Assembly (NCBI GenBank): GCA_022750115.1 | Contig: JAKIWI010000006.1 | Coordinates: 94,085 to 158,084, forward strand | DNA length: 64,000 bases | Source of the DNA: Thermoplasmata archaeon | GTDB taxonomy: Archaea; Thermoplasmatota; Thermoplasmata; Lutacidiplasmatales; UBA184 | Direction of reading: 5' to 3' | Shown: positions 46,211 through 59,335 of the stretch, piece by piece | How the letters are laid out: each line of letters begins with the position of its first letter | How positions within the stretch are numbered: position 1 is the stretch's first letter | Made by a program: the position numbers and the translations under genes | Notes under the pieces: generated by a model | Database searches by the model: none | What the model was told of the DNA's origin: nothing | What the model saw: only the letters and a program-made list of their open reading frames with translations

Positions 46211-48982
46211 ATGGCACGGCGTCGGCTCCGACCGGTACAGCGGGACAAGTCCCTGTCACCGAATCGCTCCGTGCTGCTTCTCTGCCTATGCGCCGCCGCT
46301 CTCTTGATTCCAACCCTACCGGTACTCCCGCCCCAGAGCGGTGCCTCCGCGCAGCCTCCGAACCTCGACTCGAAGAGCGTGGCCCGCGTGGCCGCCTCTC
46401 CTGCCCCGGCGGATGGTTCGCGCGAGCGGCCCCTGACCCCAGCGGTCTCAGGAGGATTCCGGTGGGCCAACCTCACGAACGGATCCGCTCCGAGTGCGAG
46501 AACTCAGTTCGCCATGTCGTATGACGCGACCGACGAATACGTCGTTTTGTTCGGCGGACGGAGCGCCATCGACAGTCGGTTCGCCCTCAACGACACGTGG
46601 GCGTACCACGCCGGCGTGTGGCGGAACATCACGTCGACGGCCGGCCGAGCCCCTCCTGCGCGCTTCGCCGCCGAAATTGCGTACGATGAGTCCGACCACT
46701 ACGTCTTCCTGACCGGGGGTCGGGGTCAGTACCAAGATGAGAACCACACGAACCCGCTCCTGACCGACAGTTGGGCCTTTGCCGGCGGGCATTGGAGGCA
46801 ACTGGGCGCGAGCTGGCCAACCGCTCTCTTGTCTTCGTGTCAAGGCACGACGGCGGCATTCGATTCCACCGACCAGTTCGTGATCGTGCTCAGTCCCTGC
46901 TCGGGATTCAGTACGGGAGGGCAGGCGGCCGCCTACCACAATGGCAACTGGACCGACCTCAGTGTGAACACAACGACCAATGCGACCATCCCAACGCCGG
47001 GCTTCATCGATCCCCTGCTGGTCGACGAACCCGCGCTCGGCGGTGTCGTGCTTTTCGGTGGGACAGACCCCTTCCTTCACGCCGCGTACAACGAGACGGT
47101 TCTCTACACCGGCGGCCAATGGATCGACGAAACCGCGAACCTGACTGGGACTCCTCCCGGGCGAGTCTTTGCGGCGGGGGACTACGATCAGGCGGATCCG
47201 GGATTCCTCCTAAGCGGCGGGGATGTCGACGTTCCACCGCTCGCCGCCACGAACTCGACGTGGATCCTCTCGAACCGGACCTGGATTCAGGCTCCGGCAG
47301 GACCAGCGCCACCGGCGGACTCCGCCAGTCGGATGGTCTGGGACAAGGTCGACAACGCCTCGATCTGGTTCGGCGGCATCCCGAACGAAACATGGTCGTG
47401 GGGAGTGACCTCCCCCCTTGTCGGCCTCGCGATCCTTCCCGGAATCAACCCAGTCGATGTCGGTGTCGCGACCGCGTTCTCCGCGAGCTATGAAGGAGGC
47501 ACTGCCCCCTTCAACTTCACCTGGCAGTTCGGCGACGGAACCGCCAGCAATCTGGCGACGCCGAGCCACGCCTACAGCGCCATCGGATCGTATTCCGTGA
47601 GCCTCGTGGTCCGGGATTCGTTCGGGCACACGGCGGCCGCCTCCGACTTGCTCAACGCCTCGGGGGCCCTGGCGGTAAGCTTGTCGGCCGGGCCCAATCC
47701 TGTCGATGTCGGGGTCCCGGTCGCCTTCAGTTCTCACCTGAGCGGCGGCTCAGCGCCGTTGGGCTACAACTGGACGTTCGGTGACGGCACCGCTCCAATC
47801 GCGTCCCCAGTCCAAGCGATCCATGCCTACGGTGTCGCCGGCAATTACACCGCCGCGCTCGTCGTCACCGACGCGGGGGGCGGCCGATTCGTCGCCGGCG
47901 CCACGATTGATGTGATCCCCGGTCCCTCGGTCCCCGTCATCACGGCGACCCCTATTTCGCCCGACCTTGGGCAGTTGGTGAACTTCTCGGCCGTGGAGGT
48001 CGGTGGGACAGTCCCCTACCACTATTCGTGGGCGTTCGGAGACGGGGGGGTCGGTGGGAACCTCGCGGCAATCTCCCACATCTTCACGACCAACGGCCCG
48101 TTCGTGGCGACCGTCACAGTGGTCGATGCGGAGGGAGCGACTATCACCGGCTCCCTAAACATGACGATCGCGTTGAACGTTTCCGCCCTCGGGAATTGGA
48201 GCGCGGGCGCGGCACCCCTCATCCTCGGATTTCATAGCGCCGTATCGGGCGGAGTTCCCGGATACACCTACGCCTGGACGTTCGGAGATGGCGGGACCGC
48301 CGCGGGCCCAACGCCCACTCACCAGTTCGACGTCCCTGGCCTCTTCACGGCGGAGCTCCGCGTCCAAGACTCGTCGGGGCACAGCGCAGAGTCCGGCTGG
48401 ACCGTGTTCGTTGCGCCGGGGGGCGGGGGTCCGCTCACCGTCACCTTGTCGCCCGAGCCATCCCAGATCGCGGTCGGCGGTTTCTCGCTCGTCACCGCCA
48501 CTCTCTCGGGAGGGCTCGGGGGGTACACGTTCCGTTGGACCGACGGGATGGCCACCTGCTTGCTGGCTGGCCCCCTGAGCGTGCGCTGCGCCCCGGCCAC
48601 GGTGGGCACTTACCCGGTCGCGCTCACCGTCGTCGACCAAGCCGGACACTCGGCCACGGGTTCGACATCGCTGACTGTCGGCGCCGCAGGGACCGTGACA
48701 AGTCCCCCGGTGGGAGGTCTCCTATCGTGGGCGCAAATTGGCGTGACTGTCGGAGTGGCTGGGGCGATCGCGGTCGCACTGATCGTGCTCGTCGTAGTCC
48801 GAAAATCGGGGGGCCGGAATGCAGCACGCCCCCGAGAGCCGGATGCCTACGCCGAATATCGCTCGGCGGTGCGGGCCGCGCCACGCGTCATCGACTCCGG
48901 TTCTCCATCCCTCGAGTCCGGCACGCCGGCCAAGAAGCCCACCCGGCCGGGTGCCCCCGATCCGCTCTCCGACCTCGAGTGA
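46211..48982 (+). CDS. Kelch-like/PKD-repeat surface protein, 923 aa, signal peptide and C-terminal TM anchor
   Basis: N-terminal LLLCLCAAALLIPTLPVL; FGGRSAIDSRFALNDTWAY Kelch-type repeats; repeated FTWQFGDGTASN.., YNWTFGDGT.., YSWAFGDGG.., YAWTFGDGG PKD repeats; C-terminal TM AGAIAVALIVLVVV. Confidence 0.85.
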   Translation: MARRRLRPVQRDKSLSPNRSVLLLCLCAAALLIPTLPVLPPQSGASAQPPNLDSKSVARVAASPAPADGSRERPLTPAVSGGFRWANLTNGSAPSARTQFAMSYDATDEYVVLFGGRSAIDSRFALNDTWAYHAGVWRNITSTAGRAPPARFAAEIAYDESDHYVFLTGGRGQYQDENHTNPLLTDSWAFAGGHWRQLGASWPTALLSSCQGTTAAFDSTDQFVIVLSPCSGFSTGGQAAAYHNGNWTDLSVNTTTNATIPTPGFIDPLLVDEPALGGVVLFGGTDPFLHAAYNETVLYTGGQWIDETANLTGTPPGRVFAAGDYDQADPGFLLSGGDVDVPPLAATNSTWILSNRTWIQAPAGPAPPADSASRMVWDKVDNASIWFGGIPNETWSWGVTSPLVGLAILPGINPVDVGVATAFSASYEGGTAPFNFTWQFGDGTASNLATPSHAYSAIGSYSVSLVVRDSFGHTAAASDLLNASGALAVSLSAGPNPVDVGVPVAFSSHLSGGSAPLGYNWTFGDGTAPIASPVQAIHAYGVAGNYTAALVVTDAGGGRFVAGATIDVIPGPSVPVITATPISPDLGQLVNFSAVEVGGTVPYHYSWAFGDGGVGGNLAAISHIFTTNGPFVATVTVVDAEGATITGSLNMTIALNVSALGNWSAGAAPLILGFHSAVSGGVPGYTYAWTFGDGGTAAGPTPTHQFDVPGLFTAELRVQDSSGHSAESGWTVFVAPGGGGPLTVTLSPEPSQIAVGGFSLVTATLSGGLGGYTFRWTDGMATCLLAGPLSVRCAPATVGTYPVALTVVDQAGHSATGSTSLTVGAAGTVTSPPVGGLLSWAQIGVTVGVAGAIAVALIVLVVVRKSGGRNAARPREPDAYAEYRSAVRAAPRVIDSGSPSLESGTPAKKPTRPGAPDPLSDLE

Positions 48983-50526: not shown

Positions 50527-51921
50527 ATGAGCAACGATCCCAGCGCCGCCAAGTACCAAATCAAAGCCCGCATCATGGCCGAAGGAGTCATCGACAAGCC
50601 CGACGTCGTCGGAGCTGTCTTTGGCCAGACGGAGGGCCTGCTCGGAGACGAGCTCGACCTCCGGGACCTTCAGAAGTCCGGCCGAATTGGCCGGATCGAG
50701 GTCGACATCGACTCCCGCAAGGGAAAGAGCGAGGGCGAGATCACGATCCCCTCCTCGCTCGACCAGGTCGAGACCGCGATCCTCGCCTCGGGCCTCGAGA
50801 CCGTCGACCGCATCGGACCCTGCCGGGCCCGGATCGAGGTCATCTCGGTCGAGGACATCCGCATCTCGAAGCGCCAGAAGGTCGTCGAGCGGGCGAAGGA
50901 GATCCTCGCCAAGCTCCAGGAAGGCTCGAAGGGGGTCGGCCTCGACCTCACCGAGTCCGTCCGCAAGGCGGTCCAGGTCGACGAGATCACCACGTACGGC
51001 CCCGAGCACCTCCCTGCCGGGCCGAACATCGACCAGGCCGACGCCCTCATCGTCGTCGAGGGACGGAGCGACGTGCTGAACCTGCTGCGCTGCGGCATCA
51101 AGAACTGCATCGCGGTCGAAGGCACCAGCGTCCCGCAGACGGTGAAGGACCTGTCCCGTGGCAAGACGGTCACCGTCTTCACCGACGGCGACCGCGCGGG
51201 GGAACTGATCCTGCGCGAGATGCTCCAGACGATGGACATCGATTTCGTCGCCCGCGCGCCGCGCGGGAGCGAGGTCGAGGAGCTCACCCAGAAGCAGCTC
51301 GTCAAGTGCCTGAGGAACAAGATCCCGATCAACCAGTTCCTCGAGATGAGCGGCTTCGAGTCGACGGGCGCGACGCGCCAGCCGATGGAAGAGCGCGGCG
51401 AGGGACCGGGACCCGGTCCGAACCGCGGCGATGGCCCGGGCCCGAACCGGGGCGATGGCCCCGGCCCGAACCGGGGCGACCGGCGCGACGACCGCCCGCC
51501 GCGACGCGACGAGCCGGAGCGGGGCCTCCCGCCCCCTCCGCCGCCTCGGGAGCCGGAGCGCCGTGCCCCGCCGCCCCCGCCTCCGCCCCCCGCGGCCGCG
51601 CCGATGTCGCCGGAGCTCCAGAAGTACTTCCAGATGCTCAGCGGGATCGAGAACACCTCGAAGAGCCTGTTCCTCGGGCCCGATGACGCCATCGTGGGCG
51701 AGGTCCCGGTGAAGGAGATGATCGACGCGCTCGCCGCCCTCGGCCAGCCGGCGAAGACCGTCGTCTTCGATGGGGTCGTGAGCCAACGTCTCCTCGACGT
51801 CGCCCAGGAGAAGGGGATCGCCACCGTCGTGGCGAACCGGATCGGCGCGGTCGGGAAGATCCCGGAGAACATCCGGGTCGTCACCCGGCTCGACGCCGCC
51901 CCCGCGCCGCACCCCCGCTGA
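50527..51921 (+). CDS. dnaG: Archaeal DnaG-type primase / exosome-associated DnaG
   Basis: YQIKARIMAEGVIDKPDVVGAVFGQTEGLLGDELDLRDLQKSGRIGRIEV; Toprim DALIVVEGRSDVLNLLRCGIKNCIAVEG, FTDGDRAGELI. Confidence 0.96.
   Translation: MSNDPSAAKYQIKARIMAEGVIDKPDVVGAVFGQTEGLLGDELDLRDLQKSGRIGRIEVDIDSRKGKSEGEITIPSSLDQVETAILASGLETVDRIGPCRARIEVISVEDIRISKRQKVVERAKEILAKLQEGSKGVGLDLTESVRKAVQVDEITTYGPEHLPAGPNIDQADALIVVEGRSDVLNLLRCGIKNCIAVEGTSVPQTVKDLSRGKTVTVFTDGDRAGELILREMLQTMDIDFVARAPRGSEVEELTQKQLVKCLRNKIPINQFLEMSGFESTGATRQPMEERGEGPGPGPNRGDGPGPNRGDGPGPNRGDRRDDRPPRRDEPERGLPPPPPPREPERRAPPPPPPPPAAAPMSPELQKYFQMLSGIENTSKSLFLGPDDAIVGEVPVKEMIDALAALGQPAKTVVFDGVVSQRLLDVAQEKGIATVVANRIGAVGKIPENIRVVTRLDAAPAPHPR
51408..51480 (+). 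repeat. In-frame 24-bp tandem repeat (GDGPGPNR)n in the dnaG linker
   Basis: GGCGATGGCCCGGGCCCGAACCGG-like units repeated in tandem. Confidence 0.8.
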
Positions 51922-52000
51922 ACCCCTTCGGGCGCCGGCTCCGCCGGCGCCCGCCGTCCCCGACCTTTATCTCCGCTTCCAACGTAGTTCACGTGAAACC

Positions 52001-53563
52001 GTGTCCGACGCGACCACGGCCGCTTCTTCCGACCCTGCCCGACCGGCGCGGATGAGCCTCGACGAGATCCGCACCTCGAACGACATCGCGATCCCCTCCG
52101 ACCCGCTCGCCCGCGTCATCGGCCAGGAGAAGGCGGTCGAGCTGGCCCGCATCGCGGCCTACCAGCACCGGCACCTCCTACTCGTCGGCCCGCCGGGCGT
52201 CGGGAAGTCCATGACGGCCCAGGCGCTCGCGCTCCACCTCGAGCGTCCGAGGACCGAGATCCGCATCGTCCACAACCCGGAGAACCCCGAACGACCGAGC
52301 GTCGAGGTGACGGGTCGCGAGGAGGTGTACCGGGAGCGCGAGGCGCGACGGACCATCGAGGGGGAACTGATCCTGCCCACCGAGGCTCCCGCCTCGGTCG
52401 CCGAGCGCCTTGGCTACCGGTGCCCACGCTGCAGCTTCTACTCCCTCCCCACCGAGCGGTACTGCCCGAGCTGCGGGAACGTCAAGCAGGTCGTCCCGGG
52501 CATGACCGCGGGGAGCGGCAATCCGTTCCGCGATCTCGTCGGGGGAATCCTCGAGCTCACCGTGAGCCCGGGCGGCAACCCGATGGAGTCTGTCCGCACG
52601 ACCCGGCTCCGCAACGGGGTGGAGGAGGTCGTCGCCTACGAGCGCGCCGGCGACAAGATCACGGTCCTCGACCAGCGCGCTCTGGAGCACCGCCGCTCGC
52701 TCCAGAAGGAGAGCCCCCGCAAGGTGCTCGTCAAGATCGACCGCAATCCGTTCGTGATGGCGACCGGGGCGAGCGAGACCGAGCTTCTCGGCGACGTTCG
52801 TCACGACCCGTACGGCGGCCACCCGCAGCTGGGGACGCAGCCGTACGAGCGGACGATCCCCGGCGCGATCCACGAGGCCCACGAGGGGGTGCTGTTCCTC
52901 GACGAGCTGCCCCACCTCGGCAACCTGCAGCGGCACATCCTCACGGCGATGCAGGAGAAGCGGTTCCCGATCACTGGGCGCAACCCGCAATCCGGCGGCG
53001 CGGCCGTCCGGGTCGACAACGTGCCGTGCGACTTCATCCTCGTCGCCGCCTCGAACATCCAGGACCTCCACGGTATCCTCTCCCCCCTCCGCTCGCGGAT
53101 CGCGGGCGGCGGCTACGAGGTCCTCCTCGAGACCACGATGCCGGACACGGAGTCCAACCAACTCAAGCTCGCCCAATTCGCCGCGCAGGAGATCGCGACC
53201 GACGGCCGGCTGCGGCCCGCGACGCGGGAAGCGATCCTCGAGATCATCCAAGAGGCGCGGCGGCGCGCCGAGGCGTACGACGGCAGTCGGAACGCGCTGA
53301 CGCTCCGCCTCCGCGAGCTCGGCGGCCTGATCCGGACCGCCGGCGACCTCGCTACGGTGGCGGGGAGCGAGTACCTCGAGGCGTCCCATGTGCGCCAGGC
53401 GCTCCAGCGGGCCCGTTCGATCGAAGAGCAGATCCGCTCGGCGTACGGCTCGCTCCAGGGGGCCATTCGACAAGACGCGACCGAGGCGCAGCGCCAGAGC
53501 ATGGGCTACTACCACTGGAACGAGCACCCCGACTCCGGGAGTTTCCCCGGCGGCTACGGCTGA
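52001..53563 (+). CDS. LonB-type AAA+ ATPase without S16 protease domain, with zinc-ribbon insertion
   Basis: VIGQEKAVELARIAAYQHRHLLLVGPPGVGKSMTAQAL Walker A; YRCPRCSFYSLPTERYCPSCG; GVLFLDELPHLGNLQRHILTAMQEKRFPITGR Walker B; ends at ...NEHPDSGSFPGGYG with no Lon protease motifs. Confidence 0.85.
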   Translation: MSDATTAASSDPARPARMSLDEIRTSNDIAIPSDPLARVIGQEKAVELARIAAYQHRHLLLVGPPGVGKSMTAQALALHLERPRTEIRIVHNPENPERPSVEVTGREEVYREREARRTIEGELILPTEAPASVAERLGYRCPRCSFYSLPTERYCPSCGNVKQVVPGMTAGSGNPFRDLVGGILELTVSPGGNPMESVRTTRLRNGVEEVVAYERAGDKITVLDQRALEHRRSLQKESPRKVLVKIDRNPFVMATGASETELLGDVRHDPYGGHPQLGTQPYERTIPGAIHEAHEGVLFLDELPHLGNLQRHILTAMQEKRFPITGRNPQSGGAAVRVDNVPCDFILVAASNIQDLHGILSPLRSRIAGGGYEVLLETTMPDTESNQLKLAQFAAQEIATDGRLRPATREAILEIIQEARRRAEAYDGSRNALTLRLRELGGLIRTAGDLATVAGSEYLEASHVRQALQRARSIEEQIRSAYGSLQGAIRQDATEAQRQSMGYYHWNEHPDSGSFPGGYG

Positions 53564-58384: not shown

Positions 58385-59335
58385 GTGCGCGCTCGGGTCG
58401 AAGTCACCTCCGCCTCCCAGCAGGTAGGCGCGCCCGCGCAACCAGCACCGATTTGGGGTGGAAGGGTGGTTGGGGAATCGAGCCGGGTGGAGAGGGTGGG
58501 TTCTCGGCGGAGTTCGGGGACCCTTCGAACTCGACGGCCGCTTGGGGTCGACCTCGTCGTCCACGGGGACGCCCAGGAGGCGCTCCGGCGGATTCCGGCG
58601 AACTCGGTCCAACTCGCCATCACCTCGCCGCCGTACAACCTGCGAATCGAGTACGCCGGGTATGCCGACGACCGGGCGCACGATGAGTACCTCGCGTGGC
58701 TCAAGGAGGTCTGGCGAGATCTGCATCGCGTTCTCGTGGTCGGCGGCCGGTTCGCCCTGAACGTGGCCCCCACGTCGATCAAGGCGTTCCGTCCGATCCA
58801 CCACGAGTTGACGGCCGACCTGCGCGCGCTCGGCTACATCATGCGGACCGAGGTGATCTGGTACAAGCAAACCATGGGCCGGCGGACGGCCTGGGGGAGC
58901 TGGCGGAGCCCCTCCAACCCGCACATCGTCCCCTCGTGGGAGTACGTCCTCGTGTTCTCGAAGGGGCAATGGAAGCTCCCGGGCCGCAAGGAGGACAGCG
59001 ACCTCACCTCCGCGGAATTCCAGAGCTACTCGGACGGGTTCTGGGCCATCCCCCCCGAGCGGGCGCGGCGCGGCCACCCGGCGCCGTTCCCGGAGGCGCT
59101 CATCGAGCGCCTGGTCAAATTCTACAGCTATCGGGGCAACACGGTCCTCGACATGTTCGGCGGGACCGGTACGGTCGGGGCGGTCGCCCGGCGCCACGGC
59201 CGCCACTACCTCAGCGTCGACGCCTCGCTTGAGTACTGCGAGCGGGCGGCGGAGCGGATCGCGCGCGCCACGCCGGTCGAGGGGGCTCCCGCCATCCCCG
59301 CGCCCCGTCTGGTCGAGTTGGTTGGTCCGGCTTAG
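58385..59335 (+). CDS. Site-specific DNA methyltransferase (N4-cytosine/N6-adenine, beta order)
   Basis: QLAITSPPYNLRIEY (motif IV) preceding NTVLDMFGGTGTVGAVARRHGRHYLSVD (motif I). Confidence 0.88.
   Translation: MRARVEVTSASQQVGAPAQPAPIWGGRVVGESSRVERVGSRRSSGTLRTRRPLGVDLVVHGDAQEALRRIPANSVQLAITSPPYNLRIEYAGYADDRAHDEYLAWLKEVWRDLHRVLVVGGRFALNVAPTSIKAFRPIHHELTADLRALGYIMRTEVIWYKQTMGRRTAWGSWRSPSNPHIVPSWEYVLVFSKGQWKLPGRKEDSDLTSAEFQSYSDGFWAIPPERARRGHPAPFPEALIERLVKFYSYRGNTVLDMFGGTGTVGAVARRHGRHYLSVDASLEYCERAAERIARATPVEGAPAIPAPRLVELVGPA

What the first reader, a model, noticed from the sequence alone, without database searches (positions are those of the whole stretch)
52001..53563. LonB-type AAA+ protein with no protease domain and a zinc ribbon in the ATPase insert
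The translation follows archaeal LonB closely from VIGQE...GxPGVGKSM through LFLDELPHLGNLQRHILTAMQEKRFPITGR, the VPCDFILVAASN region and TLRLRELGGLIRTAGDLA, but stops about 50 aa later with no Ser-Lys S16 protease module. Between Walker A and B, where archaeal LonB normally carries membrane-spanning segments, it has YRCPRCSFYSLPTERYCPSCG, a CxxC-CxxC zinc ribbon, and no hydrophobic helix. This suggests a soluble unfoldase or remodelling AAA+ derived from a membrane protease. It sits directly downstream of dnaG and upstream of an RnfD-like membrane protein.
Basis: partly seen in the sequence, partly recalled or inferred. Interest (0 to 1): 0.66.

Follow-up and report, generated by a model that had tools for sequence, protein, structure and literature searches.

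The report
LonB-derived ATPase without its protease
Acid-loving and methane-making archaea of the Thermoplasmata carry, besides a normal membrane protease LonB, a second copy that lost both its membrane anchor and its protein-cutting part, gained a zinc-binding domain, and ends in the kind of tail that protein-unfolding motors use to plug into the proteasome, which would make it a new sort of proteasome feeder.

Summary
The 520-aa ORF at 52001-53563 is an intact LonB-type AAA+ ATPase with no S16 protease domain and no membrane helix, and with a CxxC-CxxC zinc ribbon in the LonB membrane insert position. It is neither a frameshift nor a local oddity: the same genome has a full-length LonB elsewhere, and orthologues occur in 104 of 108 sampled genomes of its class and 12 of 187 elsewhere in the phylum. 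They form one deep clade (support 100/100). The ATPase residues, pore-loop aromatic and all four cysteines are conserved.

New here: (1) dnaG lies directly upstream on the same strand in 38 of 40 diverse loci. (2) The tail is disordered and variable, yet the second-last residue is Tyr or Phe in 65 of 65 members, as in PAN of the same phylum (12 of 12; LonB 5 of 51, DnaG 2 of 59). This resembles the HbYX/GQYL tails that dock unfoldases on the 20S proteasome.

Best mechanism (about 50%): a soluble ring unfoldase whose zinc/beta domain sits at the entry side and whose tails dock on the 20S proteasome, replacing the lost protease chamber. Weak points: Hb is met in only about a third of members, there is no biochemistry, and the dnaG link is unexplained. 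Main rival: a DnaG/exosome-linked remodeller. No paper found describes this family.

The parts
52001..53563 (+). protease-less LonB-type AAA+ ATPase with zinc ribbon, 520 aa (GTG start, TGA stop)
   Evidence: AlphaFold2 mean pLDDT 88 with 110 sequences; nearest solved folds LonB 3k1j/4zpx
52187..52213 (+). Walker A GPPGVGKSM (residues 63-71)
   Evidence: G63, G66, G68, K69, S70, M71 invariant in 71 paralogues and 39 LonB
52316..52720 (+). insert (about residues 106-240) at the place of the LonB transmembrane hairpin: helix, zinc ribbon, disordered link, beta hairpin, helix
   Evidence: alignment A2: median 132 aa against 78 aa in LonB; secondary structure; no hydrophobic stretch
52421..52474 (+). 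zinc ribbon C141-x2-C144 ... C155-x2-C158
   Evidence: four Cys in 71/71 paralogues, absent from 39/39 LonB; Pfam zinc-ribbon models hit in 15-26 of 65 members; pLDDT about 94-96
52589..52669 (+). three-stranded beta element (residues 197-223) of the insert
   Evidence: AlphaFold2 model
52790..52837 (+). GDVRHDPYGGHPQLGT, the LonB GDVRHDPF loop with conserved aromatic (Y271) and a three-residue insertion; assigned as pore loop by family knowledge
   Evidence: Y 69/71, F 2/71 in paralogues; F 37/39 in LonB; role inferred
52889..52906 (+). Walker B VLFLDE (residues 297-302)
   Evidence: D301 and E302 invariant in 110 sequences
53054..53056 (+). sensor 1 Asn352
   Evidence: invariant in 110 sequences
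53087..53098 (+). LRSR, arginine-finger region (residues 363-366)
   Evidence: invariant in 110 sequences
53297..53317 (+). sensor 2 LTLRLRE (residues 433-439)
   Evidence: R438 invariant in 110 sequences
53480..53560 (+). C-terminal tail (residues 494-520) in place of the S16 protease domain; penultimate Tyr519 (53555-53557)
   Evidence: penultimate residue Y or F in 65/65 family members; controls; last residues pLDDT below 50
50527..51921 (+). dnaG (archaeal DnaG, exosome-associated Toprim protein), conserved upstream partner gene
   Evidence: adjacency in 38 of 40 diverse loci, 151 of 153 loci in all, median gap 55 bp
51929..51953 (+). GC-rich hairpin just after the dnaG stop codon
   Evidence: RNA fold -26 kcal/mol, z -3.4
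51965..51972 (+). CTTTATCT, TATA-like sequence about 30 nt before the GTG: possible own promoter in this genome
   Evidence: read directly from the sequence; function inferred

Best explanation
It is a soluble, ring-forming AAA+ unfoldase that arose from a LonB-type membrane protease. Shown by sequence: the ATPase machinery is intact; the membrane hairpin is replaced by a zinc-ribbon plus beta domain; the S16 protease is gone; the protein ends in a flexible tail with an invariant aromatic second-last residue. Inferred: the zinc/beta domain crowns the substrate-entry side, where LonB has its membrane anchor, and selects substrates. The ring pulls polypeptides through its pore using the conserved GDVRHDP[Y/F] loop. 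The [Y/F]-x tails dock in the alpha-ring pockets of the 20S proteasome and open its gate, so the proteasome supplies the proteolysis that the lost S16 domain once did. Which substrates it handles is unknown; the near-obligate pairing with dnaG suggests they belong to RNA metabolism or replication (DnaG/exosome).
For: Penultimate residue aromatic in 65/65 diverse members (52 Y, 13 F) while no other of the last eight positions has one residue in more than 51%. Controls: PAN of the same phylum ends -MFA, -MFV, -MFG, -LYG, -MYH (12/12), and four of eight Cdc48-type proteins end -EGYR, -GLYL, -GLYQ, -AIYR; LonB 5/51, DnaG 2/59. 20S proteasome genes in 26/26 tested genomes with the family; alpha subunits keep the pocket lysine in S-[IL]-E-K-I, own genome included. 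All ATPase residues and the pore-loop aromatic kept. There is no stand-alone S16 partner: the only PF05362 match in the genome is in full-length LonB. Rpt1 has the penultimate Tyr without the Hb residue and still takes part in gate opening (PMC12352868); the proteasome ATPase Mpa carries a variant HbYX (PMC11475706).
Against: Position -3 is Gly in 33 and Ser in 10 of 65 members, the window protein included (GGYG), so the strict hydrophobic-Tyr-X definition is met in only about a third (M, I, A or P; 22/65), and 13/65 have Phe for Tyr. HbYX ends occur by chance in 0.93% of archaeal proteins (PMC11475706). The conserved gene partner is dnaG, not a proteasome gene. Most of these genomes also have PAN, so the family does not replace it. 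No interaction data; the tail is unmodelled in AlphaFold2.
Confidence: 0.5

Rival explanations
1. A DnaG/exosome-linked remodeller: the AAA+ ring acts on RNA-protein complexes or on DnaG itself (loading, unloading or turnover of the DnaG/Csl4 cap of the RNA exosome), with the zinc ribbon as the RNA- or DnaG-binding site. The tail binds DnaG or an exosome subunit.
For: dnaG directly upstream on the same strand in 38/40 diverse loci, overlapping it in several families; no other neighbour family was in more than half of the loci. Archaeal DnaG is an RNA-binding exosome subunit (PMC4227792).
Against: Four genomes of families f31 and f45 keep dnaG and this gene although archaeal Rrp41 (TIGR02065) is not found above cut-off, only 750-800-aa frames with two weak RNase-PH-like matches. 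Genomes that lack the family keep both dnaG and Rrp41. In the window genome a hairpin and a TATA-like box separate the genes.
Confidence: 0.27
2. A general chaperone-type remodeller with no peptidase partner, or a regulator that forms mixed rings with the full-length LonB of the same cell.
For: Full-length LonB is found in all 110 genomes searched, two of them with only a short match, and the ATPase core is 37-42% identical to LonB, so related rings coexist.
Against: LonB is membrane-anchored and the paralogue is not. The long stem (about 1.3 substitutions per site) argues against mixed rings. This reading does not explain the invariant aromatic at position -2.
Confidence: 0.14
3. A nucleic-acid translocase working with DnaG as a primase-helicase pair, in the manner of bacterial DnaB-DnaG.
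For: The core belongs to the same AAA+ branch as MCM, ChlI, ComM and RuvB (weak MCM, MCM-lid and RuvB matches; Foldseek hits to MCM, RuvB and ComM). Physical pairing with dnaG.
Against: By sequence and fold it is far closer to LonB (3k1j E 2e-104 and 2.7e-35) than to any helicase. The peptide-threading loop is retained. dnaG is retained where the gene is absent.
Confidence: 0.07
4. A decaying or misassembled lonB copy.
For: The protease half is missing.
Against: Same architecture in 104/108 genomes of the class, no S16 module in any of 65 members scanned, invariant catalytic residues and cysteines.
Confidence: 0.01

Closest known systems
Archaeal LonB protease (TIGR00764; Thermococcus onnurineus LonB, PDB 3k1j/4zpx)
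   Same: AAA+ core and LID, 37-42% identical over aligned regions; best match by sequence and by fold; same place of the insert between Walker A and B.
   Different: No S16 protease domain, no membrane hairpin; zinc ribbon plus beta domain instead; longer pore-region loop; C-terminal [YF]-x tail; separate clade with 100/100 support.
Proteasomal ATPases with HbYX tails (PAN, archaeal Cdc48/VAT, M. jannaschii PAN-2; bacterial Mpa with a variant motif)
   Same: AAA+ ring ATPase by sequence; flexible C-terminus with aromatic penultimate residue, as in PAN and some Cdc48 of the same phylum; 20S proteasome in the same genomes.
   Different: LonB-type, not classic AAA, ATPase core; Hb position often Gly or Ser; no N-terminal coiled coil/OB domain; no binding data.
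ClpX (analogy only)
   Same: Unfoldase with a zinc-binding domain and a separate peptidase partner, which is how this protein is proposed to work.
   Different: ClpX has its zinc domain at the N-terminus and docks ClpP by an internal loop (own knowledge); only weak similarity confined to the P-loop region.
LonC / TTC1975-type Lon-like proteins (PDB 4fwd, 7ev4)
   Same: Lon-family proteins with altered AAA+ or protease modules; next best fold matches.
   Different: They keep the S16 protease module; this family lost it and keeps the intact ATPase.

Membership tests
LonB protease (TIGR00764 / MEROPS S16) | LonB-type AAA+ core with LonB LID domain | tested here: met
   TIGR00764 352 bits; PF20436 25.7 bits over its cut-off of 22.4; 3k1j E 2e-104
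LonB protease (TIGR00764 / MEROPS S16) | score above the curated equivalog cut-off (516.6 bits) | tested here: not met
   352.2 bits
LonB protease (TIGR00764 / MEROPS S16) | C-terminal Ser-Lys S16 protease domain (PF05362) | tested here: not met
   no match in this protein or in 65 relatives; the only genomic match is in the separate LonB
LonB protease (TIGR00764 / MEROPS S16) | transmembrane segments inserted between Walker A and B | tested here: not met
   maximum 19-residue hydropathy 1.16 against 2.06-3.41 in LonB
Proteasomal ATPase with HbYX-type tail | penultimate aromatic residue (Tyr/Phe) at the C-terminus | tested here: met
   65/65 members, as in PAN of the same phylum (12/12), not in LonB (5/51) or DnaG (2/59)
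Proteasomal ATPase with HbYX-type tail | hydrophobic residue at position -3 | tested here: inconclusive
   M, I, A or P in 22/65; G in 33, S in 10; the window protein has G
Proteasomal ATPase with HbYX-type tail | 20S proteasome with docking pocket in the same cell | tested here: met
   PF00227 in 26/26 genomes; S-L-E-K-I pocket lysine in the own alpha subunit
Proteasomal ATPase with HbYX-type tail | binds and activates 20S | not testable with these tools
   needs biochemistry
Proteasomal ATPase with HbYX-type tail | classic AAA (PAN/Rpt/Cdc48) ATPase core | tested here: not met
   the core is LonB-type; no PAN or Cdc48 model among the listed hits
Zinc ribbon domain | two CxxC pairs conserved and folded as a ribbon | tested here: met
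   71/71 with all four Cys; pLDDT about 95; Pfam zinc-ribbon hits in 15-26 of 65
Zinc ribbon domain | binds zinc | not testable with these tools
   needs metal analysis
Archaeal exosome-associated protein | gene linkage to an exosome subunit (dnaG) | tested here: met
   38/40 diverse loci
Archaeal exosome-associated protein | present only where the exosome core is present | tested here: not met
   kept in G076, G082, G087 and G092, where Rrp41 is not found above cut-off

The most novel reading that the evidence does not exclude
A LonB-type protease became a proteasome-feeding unfoldase in the Thermoplasmatota: it dropped its own membrane anchor and protease chamber, took on a zinc-ribbon receptor, and evolved a PAN-like C-terminal tail to borrow the 20S proteasome. 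It would be a further class of proteasomal ATPase beside PAN and Cdc48, drawn from outside the classic AAA clade, and tied by gene order to DnaG.
Probability: 0.45. Interest if true: 0.8.

Novelty: new variant of a known kind. Interest (0 to 1): 0.62.

Why it matters
All proteasomal ATPases known to me (PAN, Rpt, Cdc48/VAT, AMA, Mpa) are classic AAA proteins. A LonB-derived one would show that a self-contained protease can be converted into a cap for another protease by exchanging its chamber for a docking tail, and would add a substrate route in a large archaeal class. Even if the proteasome link fails, a class-wide, highly conserved AAA+ that travels with dnaG is a strong lead to the poorly understood biology of archaeal DnaG, and it is directly testable by purification and tail mutation.

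Tried and rejected
Frameshifted or hidden S16 domain downstream: rejected, single PF05362 match elsewhere in the genome. Membrane anchoring: rejected by hydropathy. Pure exosome-core cofactor: weakened, because the gene is kept where Rrp41 is not found above cut-off. Simple replacement of PAN: rejected, since most genomes with the family also have PAN, although the f19 genomes tested lack it. PCNA-binding PIP box in the tail (Q...YY): considered and dropped because the hydrophobic position is not conserved. Csl4 presence by PF10447: uninformative, the model misses most archaeal Csl4. First AlphaFold2 run with 19 sequences: poor (pLDDT 63), replaced by the 110-sequence run. Search of other archaeal phyla: not possible with the handles available; a plasmid search found only ordinary lonB in Natrinema plus one weak Photobacterium match. 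The key paper on archaeal proteasomal AAA networks (Forouzan 2012) was not held.

Full report
WHAT IS THERE. The ORF at 52001-53563 encodes 520 aa. Its best curated match is archaeal LonB, TIGR00764 (E 5.6e-105, 352 bits), below that model's cut-off of 516.6. Pfam finds AAA/Mg-chelatase-type domains and the LonB LID domain but not the Lon protease domain. A search of the whole 2.1-Mb genome finds one PF05362 domain only, in a complete 694-aa LonB on contig C18, so the window gene is a second, protease-less copy and not a frameshift.

THE FAMILY. Orthologues at 57-98% identity were found in nearly all close relatives and in 80 loci from named genomes, all but one labelled Thermoplasmata or other archaea (close relatives include Candidatus Lutacidiplasma silvani). 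Over 295 genomes of the phylum, profile scores are bimodal: about 720-950 bits along most or all of the profile, or about 270 bits over the AAA core only, which is LonB. By my count of that table, 104 of 108 genomes of the window's class have the family (the missing four belong to families f21 and f24; f9 lacks it), and 12 of 187 elsewhere in the phylum. Full-length LonB is present in the same genomes: 110 of 110 matched, two of them by a short stretch only.

ANATOMY. In 71 diverse members and 39 LonB aligned together, Walker A (GxPGxGKSM), Walker B (DE), sensor 1 (N352), LRSR and sensor 2 (R438) are invariant. The four cysteines C141, C144, C155 and C158 are in 71/71 members and in no LonB. 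The loop GDVRHDP[Y/F], conserved in LonB, keeps its aromatic and gains three residues. The insert of about 132 aa sits where LonB has its membrane hairpin (78 aa), and no member has a membrane-like stretch. An AlphaFold2 model from 110 sequences has mean pLDDT 88, with zinc ribbon and beta element confident and the tail disordered. The closest solved structures are LonB 3k1j and 4zpx by sequence and by fold.

ORIGIN. In a maximum-likelihood tree of 349 core columns the family is one clade with 100/100 support on a long stem (about 1.3 substitutions per site), apart from LonB of the phylum, of Thermococcus and of Natrinema. The branching order among these outgroups is not resolved. That the membrane anchor and protease were lost here, rather than gained in LonB, is inferred from the wide spread of LonB.

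GENE CONTEXT. dnaG lies directly upstream on the same strand in 38 of 40 diverse loci and in 151 of 153 loci overall (the latter not deduplicated), median gap 55 bp, with overlap in several families. One exception has an extra ORF between them, the other no dnaG nearby. No other neighbouring gene family was seen in more than half of 32 diverse loci. In genomes without the family, dnaG stands with unrelated genes. In the window genome a hairpin and a TATA-like box lie between the two genes, so a shared transcript is not certain here. Archaeal DnaG is an RNA-binding exosome subunit (PMC4227792). However, in four genomes of families f31 and f45 archaeal Rrp41 is not found above cut-off while dnaG and this gene persist, so an obligate exosome-core role is unlikely.

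THE TAIL. The last residues vary strongly, but the second-last residue is Tyr (52) or Phe (13) in 65 of 65 members. As controls, PAN proteins of the same phylum end in -MFA, -MFV, -MFG, -LYG or -MYH (12/12) and several Cdc48-type proteins in -EGYR, -GLYQ, -GLYL or -AIYR, whereas LonB (5/51) and DnaG (2/59) rarely have an aromatic there. This is the place and chemistry of the HbYX motif with which PAN, Rpt and Cdc48 dock on the 20S proteasome. The strict motif is not met in many members: position -3 is Gly in 33 and Ser in 10. A penultimate Tyr without the hydrophobic neighbour is known in Rpt1 (PMC12352868), and Mpa carries a variant motif (PMC11475706). Chance HbYX ends occur in 0.93% of archaeal proteins (PMC11475706), so the argument rests on conservation, not on one sequence. 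The 20S proteasome is present in 26/26 tested genomes, with the pocket lysine in the own alpha subunit.

MECHANISM. Shown: intact AAA+ machinery, soluble, zinc-ribbon insert, no S16 domain, conserved aromatic tail, dnaG pairing. Inferred: ring formation, substrate selection by the zinc/beta domain at the entry side, threading by the pore loop, delivery into the 20S proteasome by tail docking. I give this about 50%. A DnaG/exosome-linked remodeller is the main rival (27%); it explains the gene order better but the tail less well. The two can be combined: DnaG or its partners may be substrates or adaptors.

KNOWN OR NEW. LonB, PAN, Cdc48 and AMA ATPases are known. From memory, Forouzan et al. 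2012, not held here, describes PAN, Cdc48 and AMA as the archaeal proteasomal ATPases. No paper found combines LonB with HbYX or describes this family. Membership as a LonB protease fails (no S16, no membrane part, below cut-off); membership as a proteasomal ATPase is untested. I rate it a new variant of a known kind. Limits: other archaeal phyla could not be searched, all evidence is computational, and the relatives are mostly metagenome-assembled genomes.

Noticed in passing
G076, G082, G087 (family f31) and G092 (f45): Archaeal exosome subunit Rrp41 is not found above cut-off; instead 750-800-aa frames carry two weak RNase-PH-like matches, suggesting a PNPase-like protein, although dnaG is kept.
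   Followed up: partly
G000:C18:86916-87428 (L281), own genome: A third, divergent proteasome-type (PF00227) gene, alpha-like by sequence, lies about 2.5 kb from the full-length lonB.
   Followed up: partly
window 51929-51972: Perfect GC-rich hairpin (-26 kcal/mol) right after the dnaG stop codon, followed by a TATA-like CTTTATCT, so the two genes may be transcribed separately in this genome.
   Followed up: partly
window 50527-51921: This DnaG has a long Gly/Pro/Asn/Arg- and Pro-rich low-complexity linker between the Toprim region and the C-terminal domain.
   Followed up: no
G174:C1:602101-603967: lonB appears split over two overlapping frames, a possible frameshift or sequencing error in an otherwise universal gene.
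   Followed up: no
L184-L203 and L205-L234 (LonB loci): A few full-length LonB proteins also end in an aromatic-x pair (for example -IQGYE, -LASFE); whether this means anything is unknown.
   Followed up: no
window 58385-59335: ORF with a TSPPYN motif, typical of an amino-methylating DNA methyltransferase.
   Followed up: no
window 46211-48982: 923-aa ORF that reads as a surface-type protein with repeated PKD-like stretches and a C-terminal hydrophobic anchor.
   Followed up: no
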